Positions 26,313 through 40,137 of a DNA stretch of 40,137 bases are shown one piece after another. A program made the position numbers and the translations under genes. Source of the stretch: Fibrobacter sp. (GTDB lineage Bacteria > Fibrobacterota > Fibrobacteria > Fibrobacterales > Fibrobacteraceae); contig JAGDBD010000065.1 in NCBI GenBank assembly GCA_017959225.1, forward strand, positions 1 through 40,137, in the 5' to 3' direction. How positions within the stretch are numbered: position 1 is the stretch's first letter; each line of letters begins with the position of its first letter. The notes below the pieces were generated by a model. That model did not search any database. It was given only the letters and a program-made list of their open reading frames with translations, and was not told where the DNA came from.

Positions 26313-26395
26313 TTTTCTCCATTTCCCCGTTTCGAACGTCTTCTCTTTAGAAGGTTTTGAATCGTGAATTCAAAAACCGAAAAAGGAGATGCGTT

Positions 26396-28570
26396 TTGAT
26401 AGTGAAAGCGAATATGGAAAGTGAAATTTTAAAAGGGCTGAACAGCGATCAAAAATCGGCGGTCCTTTTTGATCATCAAAAAAATGGCCCCCTTTTGATT
26501 CTTGCTGCGGCGGGTTCAGGTAAAACTTCTGTTTTGACCAGGCGCATTCAATGGCGCGTTTTGCAAGGCGCAAAGCCGGAGTCGATTCTTGCTCTGACTT
26601 TCACGGCGAAAGCCGCAGCCGAAATGCGGGAACGGGTCCAAAAGCTTTTTCCGAATGCGGATATTCGCTTGAGCACGTTCCATTCCCTTGCCTACTCCAT
26701 TCTGCGAGAAAAATTCGGCGAAAAATTTGGCTGGGAACTGGTTGGTTTTTTAAAAGCGCCTAAACCTGGAGAAGGGGAATGTGAACACTTTGCCTGTGAA
26801 CTGGTGGATCATCACGTTTTGCCGAATGCGATTCCCCGGGATGATCTTTTTAAACCGGATCTTCCTTGTAAGCTTTGCAAAAAACTGGAACCGATTCGCC
26901 AAGGGGTTTTCAAAACGGGGAATATCGTTTTTGAAGATCTGATTTACCTGTCTACGGAATTGATAGAAAAAAATCTTACCGTGCAGAAAGAAATCCGAAG
27001 TCGTTTCAAGGAAGTTCTCGTGGATGAATATCAAGACATTAACCCTTCGCAATACAAGCTTGTCCGGGCGATCCTTGGAAATAACGAGAACCTCTTTGCC
27101 GTAGGCGACGACGATCAAGCGATATACGGATTTCGCGGAGCGGACATTGGGAACGTTTTCCGGTTTTGCAAGGATTTTCCGAGGGCAAAACTTTTGCGCT
27201 TAGAATGGAATTACCGCTCGGTTCCCAAAGTCCTTTATTTGGCAAATAACATTTTTAACGAAAAGCCTTTACTACTCCGCAAAACACTGCGTGCAGGGAA
27301 CAATTCTTTAAAACCGATTTTTTTGGAAAACCGCGACCCGGAACTTTGGGAAAGCGAAGATCCCCAAACCGAAATCCTTCGAATCGTTTCTAAAATCAAA
27401 GAACTTCGGGAGGCTTACGATCTGGAATTCAAAAATTTCGCCATTCTGGTCCGTTATAATCGGCAACGTTTGTACTACGAAGAAGCTCTTGAAAGTTTCC
27501 GGATTCCGATTTTTCGGGAAGAAACTGCCGAATCTCCAGAAGTTCCCGGTGTGCATGTAGAAACCGTTCACGGTTCTAAAGGATTGCAGTATACGGTGGT
27601 CTTTTACGCAGGACTTTCGGAACGTCTTACCCCAGGGGAATGTATGGGTTCCCGAAAACAGAAAAAAATACAATTAGAAGAAGAAAAACGTCTGTTTTAC
27701 GTCGGTGTGACCCGTGCAGAGGCAGTGCTCATTTTGCTATATTGTAAAAAACGTTTTTGGAAGGGCCGCCTTTCTGAATTTAAGCCATCGCGCTTTTTGC
27801 GCTATTTGGATAGGCCTGTCCCGGAGAAGTCTCATATGCCATTGATTCTGTTTAAAATCCGCGTTGTCATTTTGGTTTTGGGATATATGATGTTCGTGAT
27901 GCCGCCTTTTTTGTTCCGCTGCGTGTTTATGCGGAAGACAATCTCTGCGTGGGTGGAAAGCCGCGTCCAGGCGTTTACGAAGTTTTGCTTCAAGGTGCTT
28001 CGGGTTCATATCGATGTGGAAAACCAGTCAGCGCTTTCCCGCGTGGATTGGAACCGCCCGGTTTTTGTGGTGGGCAATCATCAGTCCTATTTCGATATTC
28101 CCATCGTTTTTTGGACACTGGGACGCTCCATCGGTTTCTTTGCCAAAAAAGAACTGACTTACATTCCCTTTTTGAATTTTTGGATGAAAGCTTTGCACTG
28201 CGTGATTGTGGATAGGAACAATTCCAAGGCATGCGTTGCCATTAAGGACCGCTTGGAATCTTCCCATGAAACCGCCCGGGTTTTTATTTTCCCGGAAGGA
28301 ACCCGCAGCAAGGACGGAACCGTCAAGCCGTTCAAAAGCGGAGCATTTAGACTTGCAACGGATTTGAATGCGATCATTCTCCCGATTTACATTCAGGGCT
28401 CTCGTTCCACATGGGAAACCCGTAAAGATTCTAACCGGGTCGTTGTGCGTTCAACGGTCATGGAACCTATCGATCTGAAGGTTCTTTCTGCCGAAAAGCC
28501 CATTAACCCGAAGACGGAACTTGTGCCTCTCGTTTACGAAAAGTTCCAGCAGATCGCTGCAAAACAGTAA
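26396..28570 (+). CDS. UvrD-type helicase fused in frame to PlsC-type 1-acylglycerol-3-phosphate acyltransferase
   Basis: One uninterrupted frame of 724 codons joins two unrelated enzymes. Residues 1-~475 are an SF1 helicase: AAAGSGKTSVLTRR (motif I), LTFTAKAAAEM (Ia), VDEYQDIN (II), VGDDDQAIYGFRGAD (III), WNYRS (IV), VETVHGSKGLQ (V), YVGVTRAEA (VI). The 2B subdomain is nearly absent, and four cysteines sit in the 1B region (CEHFAC, CKLC). From Met481 (27836) a complete 244-residue acyltransferase follows: a membrane segment, NHQSYFD (NHx4D) and FPEGTRSKDG. GGAG at 27823-27826 is 9 bases before that Met, so the acyltransferase may also be made alone. The start is TTG 26396 with AGGAG 7 bases upstream; an earlier TTG at 26357 lacks one. 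A terminator follows. Confidence 0.85.
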   Translation: MIVKANMESEILKGLNSDQKSAVLFDHQKNGPLLILAAAGSGKTSVLTRRIQWRVLQGAKPESILALTFTAKAAAEMRERVQKLFPNADIRLSTFHSLAYSILREKFGEKFGWELVGFLKAPKPGEGECEHFACELVDHHVLPNAIPRDDLFKPDLPCKLCKKLEPIRQGVFKTGNIVFEDLIYLSTELIEKNLTVQKEIRSRFKEVLVDEYQDINPSQYKLVRAILGNNENLFAVGDDDQAIYGFRGADIGNVFRFCKDFPRAKLLRLEWNYRSVPKVLYLANNIFNEKPLLLRKTLRAGNNSLKPIFLENRDPELWESEDPQTEILRIVSKIKELREAYDLEFKNFAILVRYNRQRLYYEEALESFRIPIFREETAESPEVPGVHVETVHGSKGLQYTVVFYAGLSERLTPGECMGSRKQKKIQLEEEKRLFYVGVTRAEAVLILLYCKKRFWKGRLSEFKPSRFLRYLDRPVPEKSHMPLILFKIRVVILVLGYMMFVMPPFLFRCVFMRKTISAWVESRVQAFTKFCFKVLRVHIDVENQSALSRVDWNRPVFVVGNHQSYFDIPIVFWTLGRSIGFFAKKELTYIPFLNFWMKALHCVIVDRNNSKACVAIKDRLESSHETARVFIFPEGTRSKDGTVKPFKSGAFRLATDLNAIILPIYIQGSRSTWETRKDSNRVVVRSTVMEPIDLKVLSAEKPINPKTELVPLVYEKFQQIAAKQ

Positions 28571-30455: not shown

Positions 30456-30992
30456 GTGAAAAAGACTATTCTGACAAAGAAGGGGTTTACCCTGATTGAA
30501 GCGCTGACCGTTGTGGCGATCATAGGCATTTTGTCTGCTGCCGGTTATGCGAGTTTGCGGCAAGCCATTGCGAATAGCCGTGTTAAAGATGCTGCGTACA
30601 ATATGGCTGCTTTTTCGGAAACGGCAGCAAATAAGGCTAAGCAGATTAGCGATACCGTTTGCGTGAAGGCGGTGAATAACCGTTTGGTGGCTTATAAGTC
30701 GGCTTGTGCCCTTGTCTCGTCGAATTCCACGGTTCTCGATCGGCTGGAAATGCCCACCGGGGTGAATATCGTAACGTCCGTGGCGAACGCCTTGGAAGGT
30801 TCCAATTGGAATGCAAACGGTAATGGTGCGGAGTTTGTGCCTCGCTTTGGACTTTCGGCGGCTCCGTTGGAAGGGTACTTTCTTGTGAAATACTTGGATG
30901 CGGATTTATATGGTGCGGCTGTGAAAGTGGAACATAGGAATTCCTTTGTATCGAAAATCAGTTACAATGGAACTTCTTGGTCGGATTTGTAA
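30456..30992 (+). CDS. Type IV prepilin-like protein (GspH/FimT-like position)
   Basis: A 178-residue pseudopilin. The short basic leader ends in KKG, followed by FTLIEALTVVAIIGILSAAGYASLRQ: the prepilin peptidase site G|F with Glu at position 5, and the N-terminal helix. The C-terminal part is a small globular domain with two cysteines (about 67 and 83). Start is GTG 30456, chosen because the leader fits and a promoter element is placed 4 bases upstream. It is the first gene of four; order and sizes fit the H-type minor pilin, but a main pilin is possible. Acts in the inner membrane and pilus. Confidence 0.85.
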   Translation: MKKTILTKKGFTLIEALTVVAIIGILSAAGYASLRQAIANSRVKDAAYNMAAFSETAANKAKQISDTVCVKAVNNRLVAYKSACALVSSNSTVLDRLEMPTGVNIVTSVANALEGSNWNANGNGAEFVPRFGLSAAPLEGYFLVKYLDADLYGAAVKVEHRNSFVSKISYNGTSWSDL

Positions 30993-31001
30993 GGAGCGTT
31001 A

Positions 31002-31454
31002 ATGGTGAAAGCGCCCAAAAAAGGCTTTGGCATTATCGAAGTGCTGATCGCGATTGCAGCACTCGGTTTTTTGTATATGGCGGTGAACCATTTGCAGACG
31101 GGAAACCGGGACACTCTTCTCCGCATCCGTGGACGTGACGGTGCAATTGAAGTGGCGCAGCAGGTGGTGGATTCTTTAAGCAGTCTTGGCATTTCCAGCT
31201 TGCAATCCGGCGCAACCATTATCATTCCAGAAATCAAACGCACTTGGAAGGGACAGCCGGGCAGCGAACAATACGAAATGACGGTAAAATACAAGGCAAA
31301 GATCGTCGTGGGGAATGATTCCAAATTTACCCGCAGCGAAGAAACCGCTTACGGTTCCACTTCTCACGTTTACGGTAAACACCTGGATGTGAGTGTTTCG
31401 TGGGATTTCAAAGGTTCGGAACAATCCATTAGCGTCTCGAGGATTATTCAATGA
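31002..31454 (+). CDS. PilV/GspI-like minor pilin
   Basis: A 150-residue prepilin. The leader KAPKKG is followed by FGIIEVLIAIAALGFLYMAV with Glu at position 5 of the mature form, typical of PilV/GspI proteins. The rest forms a small beta domain that I cannot assign more closely. AAGGAG 6 bases before ATG 31002 is a good ribosome site. The stop overlaps the next start (ATGA). Confidence 0.82.
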   Translation: MVKAPKKGFGIIEVLIAIAALGFLYMAVNHLQTGNRDTLLRIRGRDGAIEVAQQVVDSLSSLGISSLQSGATIIIPEIKRTWKGQPGSEQYEMTVKYKAKIVVGNDSKFTRSEETAYGSTSHVYGKHLDVSVSWDFKGSEQSISVSRIIQ

Positions 31455-32767
31455 AAAAGAACGGCTTTACATTGATGGAACTCGTGGTGTATATGGCGAT
31501 GATTGGAATCGTCGTTTTGGTGGCTGGCCAAGCTTTTTCGGATAGCACCAAGTTCCGCGTTAGAACGCAAAACATGTTGCGGGCTTCGGAAGAAGCGGAA
31601 AACGTGGCAGCGCTTTTTAAAGATGATGTTGCCCAAATGGGCGCTAAAATGTCGAAGGAATACAAGGGATCCTCTTCTACGGACTCTTTTTACGTCGCCG
31701 ATTTGGATCTCATTTACATGGATCCGTCGTCTTCGGTTCCGGACTCTTCTTCTTTTAGGATCGGCTCAGGCGCAACCAATGAAAATACAGATACGCTGAC
31801 CCTTCGAAGAATGCGTTTTGATGGAAACGGTCATTATGTTTCGTTAGAAGAAATCGCTTGGTATTTGGACGAAAACGACAGTACGCTTTGGAGAACTTGC
31901 AAGGTAATCGATAAAAAGACGGGCGTGTCCTTTTCTAACGAGGATCCTTGTGCGGCTTCCGAAAACCCAGTCCCTGTACAGATGGCATCCCACGTGGCAA
32001 AGTTCTATGTGGAACCTGCGCAACCGGGAGTTTCCGGATCGTTGACGACTCAGCTTTTGCCATCTACCGATACTTCCGTGCACAGCTTCCGTTTGATTTC
32101 TCATGAAATTGCAGATGACTGGAAAGCGGTGACCACTTCGGATCCGTCGGAAACGGTTGCCGTTTCGGGATTCTCTGCAAATTACGATTTTGAAGAGAAA
32201 AAGGTGGATGACGATGGAAAATTGGCGAGTCAGGTTTTTGTGGCGCAGCCTAATTCCACCGACGGTAACTGGAAAACCCTTTGCCAAAAGGTGACTTTAG
32301 AACCGAATGTGGATTACAAGATTTCTTTTGACATGCCTTATGCGGAAGACGCTTCCCGCATGTTCGTTCCGGGAAGAGACCATATGGCTGTCGGATTCCG
32401 CTATGTGGCAACGGGGGATCGCCCTGCTGAACTGAAAGATTTTCTTTTTTATCCGCCGGTTTCTGCCAATTCTTCCGGTACAAGAGAAATGCACTTTACC
32501 GTGCCGACTACTCTTGAAAACCTGTGCATGGCCTTTACCTTTGCAACCTATTCGCCGGTTGCTGCCACCGGGTATGTTTACCTTGGAAACGTAAAGTTAG
32601 AGAAAGAACCTTTTTCGAATTACGAATTCAACGATTATTTCACGACTTCAGACAGGGACAAGCAGAACGTCAAAGCGTTCCGCTTGCATTTGACGATTAA
32701 CCGCAGAGGCGAAACGGGATCGACGATGCTCATTATCCCGACACCGAGCAATGGACCAAGAAGCTAA
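31451..32767 (+). CDS. PilW/GspJ-like minor pilin with inserted carbohydrate-binding-like domain
   Basis: A 438-residue prepilin, large for this class. The leader KKNG is followed by FTLMELVVYMAMIGIVVLVAG with Glu5, and the J-type pilin fold continues with EVAALFKDDVAQMG-like text and CKVIDKKTG. It ends in VKAFRLHLTINRRGETGSTM, the usual last strand of PilW proteins. Between about residues 245 and 397 there is an extra segment with the layout of a jelly-roll binding module: VTLEPNVDYKISFDMPYAED, then TREMHFTVPTTLENLCMAFTF, then GYVYLGNVKLEKE. This resembles CBM4/9-type modules; the match is by pattern only. The start overlaps the previous gene by four bases. Confidence 0.8.
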   Translation: MKKNGFTLMELVVYMAMIGIVVLVAGQAFSDSTKFRVRTQNMLRASEEAENVAALFKDDVAQMGAKMSKEYKGSSSTDSFYVADLDLIYMDPSSSVPDSSSFRIGSGATNENTDTLTLRRMRFDGNGHYVSLEEIAWYLDENDSTLWRTCKVIDKKTGVSFSNEDPCAASENPVPVQMASHVAKFYVEPAQPGVSGSLTTQLLPSTDTSVHSFRLISHEIADDWKAVTTSDPSETVAVSGFSANYDFEEKKVDDDGKLASQVFVAQPNSTDGNWKTLCQKVTLEPNVDYKISFDMPYAEDASRMFVPGRDHMAVGFRYVATGDRPAELKDFLFYPPVSANSSGTREMHFTVPTTLENLCMAFTFATYSPVAATGYVYLGNVKLEKEPFSNYEFNDYFTTSDRDKQNVKAFRLHLTINRRGETGSTMLIIPTPSNGPRS

Positions 32768-32781
32768 TGCGGAGGGTGATT

Positions 32782-35700
32782 ATGCAGAATAGCAAGAGAG
32801 GTGTTTCGTTAGTCGTCGTTTTGCTTTTTATGCTCGTGGCGACAATTGCCGCAACGGCGACTTTCCGCTGGCTGACTGCGCAAAGCAAAGCTTCCGCTTC
32901 GCGCATGGTTCAAAGTGAAGCCTACCAGTCTGCGGTGGCGGGTATTGAAGCGGCCCGCTCCTGGATGACTTTCCACGGCAACGATTTGGGCGGAATCATT
33001 CAGCAGTATTTTGTCGGCGATAAAAAACCGATTCTTTTGAATTCTGCACTGCCCACTTTGAACCGTTCTGGTCAAAAATATGACGTGTGGCTTGTGGGCG
33101 TTGACGTGTCCAATACGGATTACAAATTGAAGCTCGTTTCGCAGGGTGTTGCGCGGGACAGTTCCAAGCATAGCGAAGTTGCCGTGTTGAACGTGAGCGG
33201 TTTATACCGGGTTCGCGTGCCGAGCAACAACGGCGGCAATTTGAACTTTGAAGAAGCTTTTTTTGGAAGCGTAAGCGGGACTCAGGCCTATGAAGTAAAC
33301 TCGGGCATTATCAATGGCGACGTGACTATTGGCGGTGCTTACGCCTCTTCTGCCGATCATATCGTGGTAACTGGAAATTTGATTGTGAATTCGAATACCA
33401 GTTTAGGCGACGCGTATGTGAAAGGTTCAGTTTGCTCCTGTACGAATTTTCACGTAGAAAGGGACGCCCGTTTTGCAAGCACCCTTTATGTGGGTGGCGG
33501 TTCAAGTGGCATGGTCGTCGATGGGGATTTGTTCCTTGACAAAGGTGTGGACTTTAACCCGAACATCAACGTTTGTTCCAATAATTCCTGCGGAAACGGA
33601 AGCTTGACCGTCGGTGGCGATATGACGAGCCTTGACGACGTGGTGATGCTGAATAGCAATTCGAACGGGTACACGTATACTGTCTATGGAAACTTGGTGG
33701 TGAATGATGGACAGTTTGTTTTCCCGACAAAGTCTACTGCTGCCGTGTGGCCGTGGTTGACGGAAGGTGACGGGTATAAATTCAGCGCACTTGGAAACGT
33801 TTATGTGGATGGTGGCGTACACGACGGTACTTTTACCGCATTTACGATTGCCCCAGACTTTAATTTCGGCGCAGCCGGAAAGATTGTGTTTTTACCCGGT
33901 ATGTACGAAATTTCTTCGGCAAACGGAGGACTTGTTTACCCGCATTGGCAGAGCAATAATGTGACAGTAAACGACGGCAAAGCTTATTACCCGAAGGAAG
34001 ACGGCAGTCTTGTGGAAATGGGAAATCTGGCTCCTAATACTTATTGCAATAAAACGGATTGCGCCATTATGAACACGTATACCAATGGTTCTTGGTATTA
34101 TGGTGGCACTTTCCCATTCTTTGACAATGGAAATGACGATTATTTCCGCAATGAAATTTTTGCACAAATTAATGGAAATTACAAGACCAGTATTTCGTCT
34201 TCGGATACGGTCGGCTGGTGGGCAAATCCGATGACAGAATATGCGGAAGCGATTACGGAAGAATCCAATGGAAATTGTTCCGGTGCGCATATTGCAGACC
34301 CGATCCAGTTTAACGATTCGTTGGTAAACAGTTCCGAACTGATTAGTATCGATCATCAAAGCGTTTGCACGAATGAAATCGTGTATGTGACCCAAGGCGC
34401 TTCTGAACTGTGGGGAACGGAAAACAATGGTTCCCGCTGGGGTGAATTGAATCGCTGCTTTGAACTGGCTTCTGAAGCAAATCACCTGTATGAAGATTCT
34501 TGGCTTTTGATTGAATTCGGCGCAACGACGTTTGCAAACTACAATGGCGAAACGATTTCCCACAATATGATCATCATCTTTGATGAATATACCAATGTGA
34601 CCCTTCCGCCAACGACTTCTTCGGCATATGTGATTATGTATTTCAAGAAGGGTGGATCTATCGAAGTGAAGGATGCGGGAAGCTATCACAATTTCTTCTT
34701 CTTCAGCAAGGGCGATTTGGATTACAATGATGGATCTTCCAAAGACATTACAGGATCGATCTTCCTTTCGGACTGCCATTCCATTACTTCGAACAACAAA
34801 GTCACTGCGGAATACAATTCGAATTTGACGGCGGCCCTTACCGAAGTAGGCGTGATTTGTAATTATGATGGGACAGGTCTTTGCTCCGTTTCTTCTGGAA
34901 CAGTGGTAGCAGATGACAGTGAATCTTCGGGAGATGTCTTTAGCGGCGTTTATGACAGCAGCTTTGTGGCGATTGCTCCACAGGTCGGTGTGAGTCTTGT
35001 TTCGCAGTACCGGAACAATGAACTGGATGTGGACAATTTAGGCGAAGGGGATTACTCGTCCATTTCCCCGTCGATTTTGATTTTGCCGAGAATTGTGTAT
35101 TTGACGCGGGACGCCGAAGGGAAACTTCCGGATTATTACAATGTGATCAATTTGAACGGGGCAAATGAATCGAAGACCCCTGCCCGCGTAGCCTGCTCAC
35201 CCTCCCTTCCGACGACGGGAGCGCTTTACGACGGAACGAATCTGTTGAGCAATGGAATTTACCTTTGCACGTATTCCAGCAGTGATTATGGGGACGCTTC
35301 TTTCTATGTGAATGTTTCGGGCACAGGATCGACCGTTCCGAAGGTTCATTTTGAATCGGCTTTTGCCGAGTTGACGGCGGATGTTCCGGCGAGCATCAAC
35401 TTGGTGGTTCCCGCTTCGACTCAGGCTCAGAACGTTTCTGTGAACGTGCTTGCGCCTTCCATGCCGACGGGTTGGAATTACGTGGCGAATTCCACTTATT
35501 TGACGTGGATCGGTGACAACCTGTATACGGCAACGGTCACACCTTCGGCAACGAGCAGTGTGGTGGCGGAACTCTTTACGGTTTCTGTGGAATCGGGAAC
35601 GACAGAAGGAACGGCTACGTTCCAGTTGACGACTCCCTGCGACGGTTGCGTCATCACTTCTCCGGATATGGAAACCGCCTATATTTCGGGCGTTGCGACT

Positions 35701-38700
35701 GTGGTCCGGGCGGGCCTTGAAGAATATTGTGAAGCTTATGAAGATAATTGCCCTTCTAATGGGGAATATGACCGCGTGAAAAATCGCCCGAATTGCGATG
35801 GGCTTGTGGAGAGCGGTGACGTTTGGATTAAAGCGGACGGTATGAACTGCCGCACGACCTCTGTGAATCATCAGTGGAGATGCGGTTTAAGCAATACGAT
35901 TAAGCTTAAATCGTCTACGGGATACCCGGAAGAGTATTGCGATCTTTACCTTCCGACGGAAGACAACTCCATTGCTGCTCCTGACAATGATGGCAATTAC
36001 ACTCTTTATGCGGAATTAAAACGGAAACCTTATACGTTGCATGTGGATTTGAAAGGAACGAATCCGCAAACGGTTAACGTGTACACGTCGACGAACGATG
36101 AATTTGGAACTTCTCCGGATTATGAATGCTCGGACGAAACGAACGGTTGCGATTATACGGTTTATGCGGGCTACTATGTAAAGCTCGAAATCAACGAAGA
36201 CGATGATGACAATTTCTCTTACTGGAGATGCGCTGGTGAAGACTGTGTGAACCCGACGGAATCGGGGAACCCTCTTTCCCTTCTCATTACATCGAATAAT
36301 TCCGTGACTGCGTACTTCGGTGAAAATGATAAGCATTGCTTCTACGATTCCTTTGACACTACCGGAACGACCTGTGCAACGGGTAAATATTACTGCGTGG
36401 ATCGCTGCACCAAGAGCGGTACAAATTGCACAGTTACAGACGGTGTTTACTCGGCGACTGCAAAATGGTTGCTGATGAATCAATCGGCTTCCGATCGTTT
36501 TGAAGTTGCGGACAGTCGAATTTCGCTCATCGGAGGTTCGAATACCGATTCTTCTGCGTTCATCATGAGCACGAATCAGGCGGGTGCAACGGGCACGTTA
36601 AAAACCATGTTCCAGACCCAGATCGTTGGCAGCGATGAAGATTCGAAAACGGGACTCAATTCCGGATTTGTGCTGCGCGCTAATGAAAATGGATCGAATT
36701 ACTTTATGTTGAACGTCTTTGGCGTTAGCGAAGAAGGCATTTTGCATGTACGCCTTTGCAAATCCACGTCTCGAGAGCTTTCGTCTACTGCAAGTTGCGA
36801 AGATCGCGTTTTGAAGGATTCGGATGGGAATACGGTTTCCATTACAACGCAAACGATGATTTTGATGACGGTGGAATTAGCTCAGGCCTCTCAAAAAACG
36901 ACGATTTCTTCGATGCCCACCAGTTCCGCTTTGAACGTGTCGTTGGAAGTGGGCTTTGGCGGAAATGAAAGTTCGAATACGAAAACTCTTTCGACGAGTT
37001 TTGATTTAAGCACGCTCTTTGGCACAACCTGGAATGATGTCGATCATGAATATCTGGGCTTTAAATTGGGCGACGAAGCTTTCAAAATTTATGATCTCGG
37101 ATGGAAGAGCGCCGCTTATGCGGACTCCTGTTGGGAAACTTATCCCACGGCGAGTTGCTCGTTTAAGGCGAACTACTTGGGCGGTATCGTGCCGAAGGAC
37201 AAGGATGTGGAACCTTGGGTGGGGCTTTCTTCTTGGTTCCAAAAGAAGGATTGCAGACCGCTGTATTATTACAACGAATACTCGAGTTCTTATGGAGGCA
37301 GGAACACCGCTTCTAAAACGTCCAATTCTGTTTATGGCGAATATCTCACTAGCGACAATGATACGTATTGGCTCTATACTGGATACAACTTCAATACGGA
37401 AGGCATGTACGGTTATTCTGGCACAAAAACGGCTTACAAGTATTACAACTGGTGGACCGGCAGTTACGTAACCGAAGATTACACCGGCATGTTCTATGAT
37501 GCCGCCGTAAAGGTTTATTGTCCGGATCAAACCCTCCGTTACCATACCGAATCCAAATATGCATCTTATACGGCAGGAATCACGAGCTGTGGAACGTTCT
37601 ATGTGGGAGATGTTCGGCCCTGTTCGGAAAATGTGACGTTTGATGCTTCGGATTTGGGAATTTCTGCGAATACAGAAACGGTGGTGTCGGTTGCGAATTC
37701 TGGCGTAGTCAATGTGCGGGATTCCAAGCTGTATTTGGTTTTGGATAATTCGAATGGTGGAACTGTAACGGTTCGCTTTATCGATGCCAATGAAAATCAA
37801 AGCTTGCCTATTCGCACGACAAAAACCGGATCCTTAAGTTTTGAAACGAATGCAATGCTTGCGACTAATGCAAGCGCCGCTGTGAACGCGGATGAGTTTG
37901 CTTCGGAATCCTTTGATCCGCAAAGGGTAACGGGAATTGTCGTAAGCGGCACAAAGTTCTTTACGCTTGTAAGTGCGGGAACGACTTGCCCGAACTCGTT
38001 GAATATTTCTGATTGCGCTGTTTCGTACAACGGTACATCTTGGGAATTCAGTGCAAGTATTGAAAATGCGGCTTCGGCAAAAACCAACGGCTGCTCTATA
38101 AGCGGCGACTTTGTTTCCATCGCAGCAACGCAGAGCATGGATTGCCCAACGACAAACCCGGCTGCATTCAGCGTATCGGAAGATGTCTATTCGAGCTTGA
38201 CTACGAAAACCACTTACAACTTTACCATTTCCGCCCAAAGTGAAAATGAAACGGTTTCGTGCGAAGCCTCTACAGAGCTTAGCCCCACAAATCTGGTGTG
38301 CTATATTTCGGCGGAGTCCGTTCAAGCGGGATCTGGAACTGTTCCATCTTTGAAGTACGCGTTCAACAACTGCCCGGCAGGAGTTTGCTCGTACACGGTG
38401 AATTTAACTGGCCCGGATGTTTCTAGCGAATCCCAAGGCACATTCTATTCGGGAGAGGCAGTTTCCTCTTGGAGCCCGGCGGACCTTGCTAATTCGGCGA
38501 GCAGCCCGCTTGCAGCTGGCGAATATACTTATACGCTTACTCCGACACAACCGTCGAACCTTTCGGGATGTACCTATTCGTTTACGGTGTCGGAATCGGA
38601 AATGCCCACGATTTCAAGCTGTGCAGTGACAAATGCTGGGGCTTTCACGGCAACGGTTTCCAATATTTCGGGCGTGACTTATGATTATACGCTGAGCGTT

Positions 38701-40137
38701 ACCGACAATTTGGGAAATGTGATTGCGAACAAGACGGTTACAGGTTCTACCAATGCGACGAATTTTGCAAATAGTTCCATTACACCGCCGACCGCTTCGG
38801 GAGAATATTCCTATGCGTTGTCGATTACGTATGGTGAAGAAAATCCGAGCACTTGCCAGGCGGAGCTCGCTGTAGAATCGTCTAGTTCCAGTTCTTCGGA
38901 AGAAGAAAGCTCGAGTTCTAGCCTCAGCTCCAGTTCTGAAGCTTCCAGCTCCAGTGCGGAAGTTGTTGAATCTAGTTCCAGCGCAGAAACTCTTGCAATT
39001 ACATGTGGTGTATCGACTTATACCTATGGAATCAGCGGAGGCGATGATTTCTATACGAATCAGTCTCTGTATTTTATAGGAAAAAATAATGTAAATGAAG
39101 GAGAAACTTATACAGTCAATGTGTATAGAGGTTCTACGGCATTGGACGATGCGACGATTTCTTCTTACACGAATGCATCGAATCTTGCCTCTTTGGGAAA
39201 ACTTTCGGAAGGCAGTTATACATTCCATGTGATGTATAATAACGCAGTTATCTGTTCTCATTCAATAACCGTGGTGAATCCTGTGGGTTGCTCGGTCAGT
39301 GCATCGAATATTGGGTTGGGCGAATCGGTGACGATTTCTACGACTTACTCAGGGAATTGTTGGGGATCTTCCTTTACGGCTTCTCCAAGTGAAGGTAGCG
39401 GAGTTTCAAATCCGGGGACATGCCAGTCTTCGTATACGGTGACACCGACAGTGGCTGGCACTTATACATATAAATATGCGGTCACAAACGGTAGCGATGG
39501 TGTGGATTCCTGTTCTCAGACGGTTACGGTGGAGAGAGTCGCTCCGACCTTTACCTGCCCGTCGAATGCCAAGGCTTCAATTGGAGCGTCGGATAATGTG
39601 GCTCTCAACTTGAGCGGAGTCAGCGGTTGTGATGAAGGTGGAAATTACTGCTATTATTCGATTTCTGGAACGGATATTACGGCTTCTGGAAATAGTTATA
39701 CAGGAGGAACCCTCCCGGCGTTTACCGATGGCAATGTGACATCTGCGGAATCCAAGACGTATACCGTTCGTTTGACAAATTCAGTGGGTTATGTGGAACA
39801 TGACTGTAGCGTGGAATTTGTGGAAGGGTCGGCATCGCCTGACTACACCATCTGCCTAGATAAAGCCGATAAAAATGGTTGGCCTGAAATCACATCAGGA
39901 ATTTCGGCAGTAGGAACATATGAAGTGTTGCATGATTGTCAAGGAACAGAGTCCTATAGTTATTTCTATAACTGTTCAAATGGAGCAGATATCACGTGGG
40001 ATGGGACGGCCTTGATTTGTGATGGTTCTGAACATCAGGCAACGGCTGCAAATATGCCTCCATCCGGTTCTATTTTGACGATCAATTCTGATACGATTTA
40101 CAAAATTGGTTGTGGATATGGATCAGGAACAAGTCCC
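32782..40137 (+). CDS. Giant PilX/GspK-like protein, putative pilus-tip adhesin; 3' end outside window
   Basis: Open for 2452 codons to the window edge without a stop. The N terminus is a PilX-type segment: SKRG|VSLVVVLLFMLVATIAATATF, lacking the usual Glu5 as in tip pilins of the K type, then AYQSAVAGIEAARSWMTF. Following parts by residue: ~165-355 beta-helix-like repeats (GDVTIGGAY, GNLIVNSN, GNVYVDGG); ~800-960 Ig-like; ~1081-1180 a divergent InlB-B-type repeat ending NSVTAYFGEN; ~1184-1440 a lectin- or LamG-like segment; ~1494-1573 a Tyr/Trp-rich stretch; ~1610-2032 Ig-like domains; 2033-2067 a linker of Ser blocks with Glu; then more Ig/PKD-like segments. Many paired cysteines suggest disulphides. 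GGAGG 6 bases before ATG 32782 supports the start, 14 bases after the PilW-like stop. Confidence 0.83.
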   Translation, partial: MQNSKRGVSLVVVLLFMLVATIAATATFRWLTAQSKASASRMVQSEAYQSAVAGIEAARSWMTFHGNDLGGIIQQYFVGDKKPILLNSALPTLNRSGQKYDVWLVGVDVSNTDYKLKLVSQGVARDSSKHSEVAVLNVSGLYRVRVPSNNGGNLNFEEAFFGSVSGTQAYEVNSGIINGDVTIGGAYASSADHIVVTGNLIVNSNTSLGDAYVKGSVCSCTNFHVERDARFASTLYVGGGSSGMVVDGDLFLDKGVDFNPNINVCSNNSCGNGSLTVGGDMTSLDDVVMLNSNSNGYTYTVYGNLVVNDGQFVFPTKSTAAVWPWLTEGDGYKFSALGNVYVDGGVHDGTFTAFTIAPDFNFGAAGKIVFLPGMYEISSANGGLVYPHWQSNNVTVNDGKAYYPKEDGSLVEMGNLAPNTYCNKTDCAIMNTYTNGSWYYGGTFPFFDNGNDDYFRNEIFAQINGNYKTSISSSDTVGWWANPMTEYAEAITEESNGNCSGAHIADPIQFNDSLVNSSELISIDHQSVCTNEIVYVTQGASELWGTENNGSRWGELNRCFELASEANHLYEDSWLLIEFGATTFANYNGETISHNMIIIFDEYTNVTLPPTTSSAYVIMYFKKGGSIEVKDAGSYHNFFFFSKGDLDYNDGSSKDITGSIFLSDCHSITSNNKVTAEYNSNLTAALTEVGVICNYDGTGLCSVSSGTVVADDSESSGDVFSGVYDSSFVAIAPQVGVSLVSQYRNNELDVDNLGEGDYSSISPSILILPRIVYLTRDAEGKLPDYYNVINLNGANESKTPARVACSPSLPTTGALYDGTNLLSNGIYLCTYSSSDYGDASFYVNVSGTGSTVPKVHFESAFAELTADVPASINLVVPASTQAQNVSVNVLAPSMPTGWNYVANSTYLTWIGDNLYTATVTPSATSSVVAELFTVSVESGTTEGTATFQLTTPCDGCVITSPDMETAYISGVATVVRAGLEEYCEAYEDNCPSNGEYDRVKNRPNCDGLVESGDVWIKADGMNCRTTSVNHQWRCGLSNTIKLKSSTGYPEEYCDLYLPTEDNSIAAPDNDGNYTLYAELKRKPYTLHVDLKGTNPQTVNVYTSTNDEFGTSPDYECSDETNGCDYTVYAGYYVKLEINEDDDDNFSYWRCAGEDCVNPTESGNPLSLLITSNNSVTAYFGENDKHCFYDSFDTTGTTCATGKYYCVDRCTKSGTNCTVTDGVYSATAKWLLMNQSASDRFEVADSRISLIGGSNTDSSAFIMSTNQAGATGTLKTMFQTQIVGSDEDSKTGLNSGFVLRANENGSNYFMLNVFGVSEEGILHVRLCKSTSRELSSTASCEDRVLKDSDGNTVSITTQTMILMTVELAQASQKTTISSMPTSSALNVSLEVGFGGNESSNTKTLSTSFDLSTLFGTTWNDVDHEYLGFKLGDEAFKIYDLGWKSAAYADSCWETYPTASCSFKANYLGGIVPKDKDVEPWVGLSSWFQKKDCRPLYYYNEYSSSYGGRNTASKTSNSVYGEYLTSDNDTYWLYTGYNFNTEGMYGYSGTKTAYKYYNWWTGSYVTEDYTGMFYDAAVKVYCPDQTLRYHTESKYASYTAGITSCGTFYVGDVRPCSENVTFDASDLGISANTETVVSVANSGVVNVRDSKLYLVLDNSNGGTVTVRFIDANENQSLPIRTTKTGSLSFETNAMLATNASAAVNADEFASESFDPQRVTGIVVSGTKFFTLVSAGTTCPNSLNISDCAVSYNGTSWEFSASIENAASAKTNGCSISGDFVSIAATQSMDCPTTNPAAFSVSEDVYSSLTTKTTYNFTISAQSENETVSCEASTELSPTNLVCYISAESVQAGSGTVPSLKYAFNNCPAGVCSYTVNLTGPDVSSESQGTFYSGEAVSSWSPADLANSASSPLAAGEYTYTLTPTQPSNLSGCTYSFTVSESEMPTISSCAVTNAGAFTATVSNISGVTYDYTLSVTDNLGNVIANKTVTGSTNATNFANSSITPPTASGEYSYALSITYGEENPSTCQAELAVESSSSSSSEEESSSSSLSSSSEASSSSAEVVESSSSAETLAITCGVSTYTYGISGGDDFYTNQSLYFIGKNNVNEGETYTVNVYRGSTALDDATISSYTNASNLASLGKLSEGSYTFHVMYNNAVICSHSITVVNPVGCSVSASNIGLGESVTISTTYSGNCWGSSFTASPSEGSGVSNPGTCQSSYTVTPTVAGTYTYKYAVTNGSDGVDSCSQTVTVERVAPTFTCPSNAKASIGASDNVALNLSGVSGCDEGGNYCYYSISGTDITASGNSYTGGTLPAFTDGNVTSAESKTYTVRLTNSVGYVEHDCSVEFVEGSASPDYTICLDKADKNGWPEITSGISAVGTYEVLHDCQGTESYSYFYNCSNGADITWDGTALICDGSEHQATAANMPPSGSILTINSDTIYKIGCGYGSGTSP

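What the first reader, a model, noticed from the sequence alone, without database searches (positions are those of the whole stretch)
32782..40137. A minor pilin of at least 2452 residues: pilus subunit and giant adhesin in one chain
The N terminus is a PilX/GspK-type pilin helix without Glu5 (seen in sequence), and it is the fourth gene in an H-I-J-K-type minor pilin order. The remaining >2400 residues have beta-helix-like, InlB-B-like, lectin-like and Ig-like segments and a polyserine linker. In known systems the H-I-J-K complex caps the filament and the K subunit or PilY1 carries adhesion (established). I infer that here the adhesin is fused directly to the tip pilin, which would give a fibre-degrading bacterium a long substrate-binding tip. 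No pilY1-like gene is seen in the window. I do not know of a described case of this size.
Basis: partly seen in the sequence, partly recalled or inferred. Interest (0 to 1): 0.82.

Follow-up and report, generated by a model that had tools for sequence, protein, structure and literature searches.

The report
Giant pilus-tip protein of Fibrobacter bacteria
Fibre-digesting Fibrobacter bacteria encode a conserved protein of about 2,000 to 3,200 amino acids that starts as the tip subunit of a retractable surface pilus and continues as a long, probably adhesive rod, roughly three times longer than the largest pilus subunit of this general type in the one census I found.

Summary
The ORF (32767-40137, + strand) is open to the contig end. 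The window is the whole contig; a 65%-identical ortholog in a complete same-genus genome ends 9 codons further, so the protein is nearly complete (about 2,466 aa). It has an invariant Gly before a hydrophobic helix, lacks Glu5 (as do all 73 distinct relatives), matches PilX_N/GspK profiles weakly, and follows FimT-, PilV- and PilW-like genes. It is the only clear PilX-like protein in six genomes checked. AlphaFold2 predicts a 55-residue pilin helix, a four-strand head, a beta-solenoid, then beta-sandwich domains; confidence is moderate. The family occurs in 85 Fibrobacteraceae genomes (median about 2,300 aa, maximum about 3,200; shorter in termite lineages). PilB, D, Q and PilT-type genes occur in the same genome; PilC, M, N and O were identified in its closest complete relative. 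PilY1 was not detected in 41 genomes, but that search had no positive control. Tip location and adhesion are inferred; InlB-B-like and lectin-like labels found no support. Closest precedents are ComZ, GspK and streptococcal modular pilins: a new, much larger variant of a known kind. In passing: a shufflon-like array of major-pilin tail cassettes in related Fibrobacter.

The parts
30456..30992 (+). FimT/GspH-like minor pilin (first of the four-gene set)
   Evidence: N_methyl PF07963 E=7e-7; NCBIfam GspH E=5e-8, below its cut-off
31002..31454 (+). PilV/GspI-like minor pilin (KKGFGIIEVLIAI)
   Evidence: N_methyl E=0.002, below cut-off; position in order
31451..32767 (+). PilW/GspJ-like minor pilin (438 aa)
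   Evidence: N_methyl E=2e-5, over cut-off
32767..40137 (+). Giant K-type (PilX/GspK-like) minor pilin; about 9 codons plus stop lie beyond the contig end, judged by the ortholog
32782..32973 (+). Leader ending KRG, then pilin alpha1 helix without Glu5 (V at mature position 5)
   Evidence: invariant Gly in 24 sequences; helix 10-64; no Glu5 in 73 of 73 distinct relatives
33076..33216 (+). Small beta head of the pilin (four strands, residues 99-145)
   Evidence: AlphaFold2; GLY motif invariant
33259..34047 (+). Predicted beta-solenoid; residues 201-500 are the fastest-diverging stretch of the first 2000
   Evidence: Foldseek weak matches to tapirin 4wa0 and ice-binding proteins, none significant
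34429..35346 (+). Conserved beta-rich domain with invariant Cys (C559, C805, C829); with the pilin and solenoid it makes up most of the shortest family members
35350..38736 (+). Series of predicted beta-sandwich/Ig-like domains, many conserved Cys
   Evidence: AlphaFold2 model 2; generic multi-beta-sandwich fold matches only
38875..38991 (+). Polyserine/glutamate linker
38992..40137 (+).
   Evidence: sequence

Best explanation
It is the K subunit of the minor-pilin complex that starts and caps a retractable type IVa pilus, enlarged into a tip fibre. The leader is removed by the prepilin peptidase, the Glu5-less helix places it at the apex above the J, I and H subunits, and the pilin head carries a beta-solenoid followed by a rod of beta-sandwich domains. 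The chain, narrow in cross-section, is pushed out first through the PilQ secretin and reaches ahead of the filament. The solenoid and the rod then bind a surface, most likely plant cell-wall polymer, and PilT retraction pulls the cell against it. Shown here: sequence, gene order, conservation, machinery genes, predicted helix and solenoid. Inferred: processing, tip position, exit through PilQ, binding and ligand.
For: K-type features: invariant Gly before the hydrophobic segment, no Glu5 in 73 of 73, PilX_N hits in 12 of 24 members and GspK hits (residues 6-62 of the window protein) in 12 of 24, over the PilX_N cut-off in three genomes. Long pilin helix and beta head predicted. Class-III-signal genes upstream on the same strand in 66 of 73 distinct loci. 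It is the only clear PilX-like protein in six genomes. Machinery: PilB, PilQ and PilD in the same genome; PilM, PilN, PilO, PilC and PilT in its closest complete relative; several PilB/PilT-family ATPases in each genome. One secretin in each of three genus-g1 genomes, while G016 has a second secretin beside its own pseudopilin-like genes, so in g1 the set can only serve that pilus. No PilY1 in 41 genomes. Precedents: GspK caps its complex, ComZ tip model (PMC6561018), adhesive modular pilins (PMC8179133), tip complex capped by the Glu5-less subunit (PMC10191384).
Against: No localisation or binding data. The window protein's own profile matches are below curated cut-offs. AlphaFold2 confidence is moderate (pLDDT 77, pTM 0.60; residues 1-40 low). 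No significant structural neighbour for residues 1-865 and only generic ones beyond. No known carbohydrate-binding family matched. Two same-genus genomes, one 98% complete, show no copy, so it may not be needed for pilus assembly. Some copies are truncated or frameshifted.
Confidence: 0.65

Rival explanations
1. It is a GspK-type pseudopilin of a type II secretion system, and the large extension guides or holds secreted enzymes rather than acting on a pilus.
For: The N-terminus matches GspK as well as PilX. The first pilin matches GspH. Published work suggests type II secretion in F. succinogenes (PMC3079729).
Against: The three g1 genomes searched have one secretin, which scores best as PilQ, with PilT-type ATPases present. 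G016 has a second secretin with its own pseudopilin-like genes on a different contig from its giant K. A 2000-residue external extension is hard to fit in a pseudopilus that normally stays in the periplasm.
Confidence: 0.12
2. It is a giant surface adhesin that stays in the cell envelope: the N-terminal helix is only a membrane anchor or an ordinary signal peptide, and the protein is not polymerised into a pilus.
For: The hydrophobic segment ends in ATIAATA, a possible signal peptidase site; low AlphaFold2 confidence in residues 1-40; sub-threshold pilin profile scores for the window copy.
Against: The Gly at -1, the SL..VL.FM..AT pattern and residues well past the hydrophobic part (S38, R41, Q49, G54, W61) are invariant in 24 sequences, which a signal peptide would not need. 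The helix runs on to residue 64 as in pilins. Class-III-signal genes lie upstream in most loci.
Confidence: 0.15
3. It is a pilus-tip protein, but mainly a DNA-uptake or cell-cell receptor, as ComZ is, not a fibre adhesin.
For: ComZ is the closest described architecture: GspK-like pilin plus beta-solenoid, DNA binding (PMC6561018).
Against: No sequence match to ComZ in PDB-wide profile searches; all segments beyond residue 150 are acidic (pI 4.1-4.9), unlike a typical DNA-binding surface; the added 1600-residue rod has no counterpart in ComZ.
Confidence: 0.08

Closest known systems
ComZ of Thermus thermophilus (PMC6561018)
   Same: GspK-like pilin, not predicted as an ordinary PilD substrate, in a minor-pilin gene set, carrying a large beta-solenoid; argued to sit at the tip
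   Different: Far smaller (beta-solenoid about 380 residues, no rod); solenoid inserted before the last pilin strand (not resolved here); DNA binding shown; no sequence match found
GspK/PilX/PilK minor pilins
   Same: Glu5-less helix, fourth in H-I-J-K order, partial profile match
   Different: GspK carries an alpha-helical insert; K subunits are normally a few hundred residues (general knowledge)
Modular pilins PilB and PilC of Streptococcus sanguinis (PMC8179133, PMC9934059)
   Same: Pilin module fused to a binding module, adhesive, expected to be tip-exposed
   Different: PilB is 454 residues after processing and has Glu5; that census required the IPR012902 motif and its most extreme multi-domain case was 860 residues
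PilY1/PilC tip adhesin
   Same: Would fill the same place: large modular adhesin at the pilus tip
   Different: Not a pilin; beta-propeller domain PF05567 absent from this protein and not detected in 41 genomes (control silent)
PilX_N plus DUF3494 ice-binding proteins (table in PMC9957290)
   Same: PilX N-terminus followed by a beta-solenoid domain
   Different: Reported only as a domain pairing in Arctic metagenomes; no DUF3494 match here
Tapirins of Caldicellulosiruptor (4wa0; PMC7142884)
   Same: Beta-helix cellulose adhesins; best Foldseek hit of model 1
   Different: Not significant (E=0.19, prob 0.69); not a pilin fusion; a lead only

Membership tests
K-type minor pilin (GspK/PilX/PilK) | Short basic leader ending in Gly before a hydrophobic segment | tested here: met
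   G7 invariant and K5 at least 90% conserved in 24 sequences
K-type minor pilin (GspK/PilX/PilK) | No Glu at mature position 5 | tested here: met
   T 45, A 23, V 4, M 1 of 73 distinct proteins
K-type minor pilin (GspK/PilX/PilK) | Long alpha1 helix packed on a small beta-sheet | tested here: met
   Helix 10-64, strands 99-145 in AlphaFold2, moderate confidence; packing not inspected because coordinates are not exposed
K-type minor pilin (GspK/PilX/PilK) | Fourth gene after H, I, J pilins | tested here: met
   Window and most of 20 loci; at least one class-III ORF upstream in 66 of 73
K-type minor pilin (GspK/PilX/PilK) | Profile match over curated cut-off | tested here: inconclusive
   Over the PilX_N cut-off in G001, G005, G016; window copy 21.4 bits against 25.5
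K-type minor pilin (GspK/PilX/PilK) | Cleaved by prepilin peptidase and located at the filament tip | not testable with these tools
   Prepilin peptidase gene present; no experiment possible
ComZ | Beta-solenoid carried by a GspK-like pilin | tested here: met
   Solenoid predicted 160-422; beta-helix proteins in profile searches, weak
ComZ | Sequence or fold match to ComZ itself | tested here: not met
   No ComZ chain at E<=10; not among the top 50 Foldseek matches
ComZ | DNA binding | not tested
   needs recombinant protein
Modular pilin (Pelicic definition) | N-terminal IPR012902 class III motif plus a recognised extra domain | tested here: not met
   No N_methyl and no Pfam domain in the window protein
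PilY1 | C-terminal beta-propeller PF05567 | tested here: not met
Type II secretion GspK | Encoded with or serving a GspD secretin system | tested here: not met
   Single PilQ-like secretin in G000, G002, G005
Tapirin | Tapirin beta-helix fold | tested here: inconclusive
   Foldseek E=0.19, TMt 0.47

The most novel reading that the evidence does not exclude
Fibrobacteraceae pili replace the separate PilY1 adhesin by a single 2,000-3,200-residue tip pilin that both initiates the filament and forms a long cell-wall-binding tip fibre with a fast-diverging solenoid, carried on a shaft whose major pilin is itself switched by a shufflon in some species.
Probability: 0.4. Interest if true: 0.78.

Novelty: new variant of a known kind. 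Interest (0 to 1): 0.62.

Why it matters
How Fibrobacter clings to crystalline cellulose is an old open question, and the S85 genome paper held that the pilus gene set was incomplete (PMC3079729). Here related genomes have the core type IVa pilus genes plus a conserved giant tip candidate that lacks the motif used in pilin surveys, so it was easy to miss. It gives one gene to delete or label. It would also extend the known size of pilin-borne adhesins about threefold and ask how such a chain passes the secretin.

Tried and rejected
Pfam scans of the protein and of all alignment members for carbohydrate-binding, InlB-B or lectin domains found none. Sequence search against PDB with the single protein found nothing; profiles gave only weak beta-helix and beta-sandwich matches. 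Foldseek of model 2 gave significant E-values to complement and macroglobulin chains, but TM-scores of about 0.1 show this is a generic string of beta-sandwiches. A PilY1 search across 41 genomes found nothing, but no control genome rang either, so absence is not proven. The idea that the open end hides a frameshift or a far longer protein was rejected by the ortholog's stop 9 codons on. The S85 genes Fisuc_0251-0253 may be the upstream trio, but no paper described the next gene. Whether the solenoid is inserted within or appended to the pilin sheet could not be decided, since model coordinates are not exposed.

Full report
1. The observation. ORF 32767-40137 (+) is open to the end of the window. 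The window is the entire contig C55 of a 130-contig assembly. An ortholog in a complete same-genus genome (G002) is 65% identical over its whole length and ends 9 residues after the window's last residue. In that genome the next conserved gene is trpS; in the window's assembly trpS opens contig C8. The gene is therefore essentially complete at about 2,466 aa and about 262 kDa. The start codon at 32767 overlaps the PilW-like stop by one base, as in G002, which suggests translational coupling.

2. Context. Upstream lie FimT/GspH-, PilV/GspI- and PilW/GspJ-like genes, with class III signals found by Pfam, the PilV-like one below cut-off. The order recurs in most of 20 relatives read in full, and 66 of 73 distinct loci have at least one such gene upstream on the same strand. 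In genus g1 the set follows dnaA. Some genomes carry two or three sets; in G031 and G033 two lie close together in opposite orientation.

3. The N-terminus. The leader ends in an invariant Gly; the hydrophobic helix lacks Glu5 in all 73 distinct proteins. PilX_N matches 12 of 24 members and GspK matches 12 of 24, including residues 6-62 of the window protein, mostly below curated cut-offs. PilX_N searches in six genomes find only the giant protein, apart from two weak hits. AlphaFold2 predicts one helix over residues 10-64 and four strands at 99-145.

4. The rest of the chain. A beta-solenoid is predicted for about 160-422, and profiles of this part pull out beta-helix proteins weakly. A conserved Cys-containing beta domain follows (about 550-855). 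In the shortest relatives, of termite-gut lineages (about 850-950 aa), pilin, solenoid and this domain make up nearly the whole protein; the rumen species add about 1,600 residues of predicted beta-sandwich domains and a polyserine linker. Across 60 complete distinct ORFs the median length is 2,305 aa and the maximum 3,194 (a few are truncated). Between the window and G002, residues 201-500 are only 37-47% identical per 100-residue block while the blocks on either side are mostly 62-87%; the linker region (2001-2200) is the other variable part. This pattern fits an exposed, diversifying binding region, but relaxed constraint is not excluded.

5. Distribution and machinery. 85 genomes of the window's family match the N-terminal profile; nine listed family members do not, including one same-genus genome at 98% completeness. 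Outside the family only one order-level relative matches well (1,504 aa); the other matches are weak. Named loci include Fibrobacter intestinalis ATCC 43854 and many F. succinogenes metagenome genomes. The window's genome has PilB, PilQ, PilD and two further PilT-size ATPases; G002 also gives PilM, PilN, PilO, PilC and a PilT over its curated cut-off. The S85 genome paper stated that a complete pilus gene set is not present (PMC3079729). No PilY1 was seen in 41 genomes, though the search had no positive control.

6. Mechanism. The best-supported reading is a K subunit that caps the minor-pilin complex and carries the tip module itself. In described systems the tip complex is capped by the Glu5-less subunit and assembly goes from tip to base (PMC10191384). 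ComZ shows that a GspK-like pilin can carry a beta-solenoid, argued to be at the tip (PMC6561018), and S. sanguinis shows that pilins can carry adhesive modules (PMC8179133). The ligand is unknown. Plant cell-wall polymer is an inference from lifestyle; the weak tapirin-like fold hit is only a lead.

7. Novelty. The pilin census in PMC8179133 gives 860 residues as its most extreme multi-domain case and requires the IPR012902 motif; this family lacks that motif and is about three times longer. It is a new variant of a known kind, not a new kind.

8. Side finding. In G002, G005, G001, G021 and G022 the full major pilin gene lies among 3-9 tail-only cassettes that start at the same codon with a shared joint of about 20 bp. 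Many form convergent pairs, so the joints are inverted repeats around segments of about 0.8 kb, and G002, G005 and G022 carry a tyrosine recombinase gene in the array. Between G005 and G001, four cassette slots have identical 80 bp upstream but cassettes only 56-58% identical. This looks like a shufflon for the pilus shaft; inversion itself was not observed. No paper on it was found in two searches. It is not seen in the window's assembly.

Noticed in passing
L167 (G002:C1:1229000-1246500), L168 (F. intestinalis ATCC 43854), L169, L170, L171: A full pilA gene surrounded by 3-9 pilin tail cassettes without N-termini, on both strands, sharing a joint TACGTGAAGTTGCAGCAGGC at the same codon; convergent pairs make inverted repeats around about 0.8 kb. 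Four slots in G005 and G001 keep identical upstream DNA but hold different cassettes. Looks like an unreported shufflon for the major type IV pilin.
   Followed up: partly
L167:12316-13275 (+), L168:9835-10671 (+), L171:1668-2498 (-): Tyrosine recombinase genes (Phage_integrase PF00589, E about 1e-14) inside or beside the pilin cassette arrays, candidates for the shuffling enzyme.
   Followed up: partly
L034/L035 (G031), L036 (G033), L050 (G030), L051 (G034): Two or three complete or partial minor-pilin sets, each with its own giant K gene, lie near each other, mostly in opposite orientation, which suggests duplicated alternative pilus tips.
   Followed up: no
L147:7220-11361 (-) (G016): A second secretin with pseudopilin-like genes, probably a separate type II secretion system, in a genus g2 genome but not in the three g1 genomes searched.
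   Followed up: partly
L122:8994-10898, L123:5281-6381, L124:7481-8680, L146:9362-15250; L125, L149, L150 (window's genome): Core type IVa pilus genes (PilB, PilT, PilC, PilM-N-O, PilQ, PilD) are present and scattered, contrary to the published statement for S85 that the set is incomplete.
   Followed up: yes
L044:6113-13013 (G001): The giant gene is split into two overlapping ORFs by an apparent frameshift, either an assembly error or a decayed copy.
   Followed up: no
window 26357-28570: One ORF appears to join a UvrD/Rep-like helicase N-terminus to a PlsC-like acyltransferase C-terminus (read by eye); the syntenic ORF in G002 is also long (725 aa), so the join may be real.
   Followed up: no
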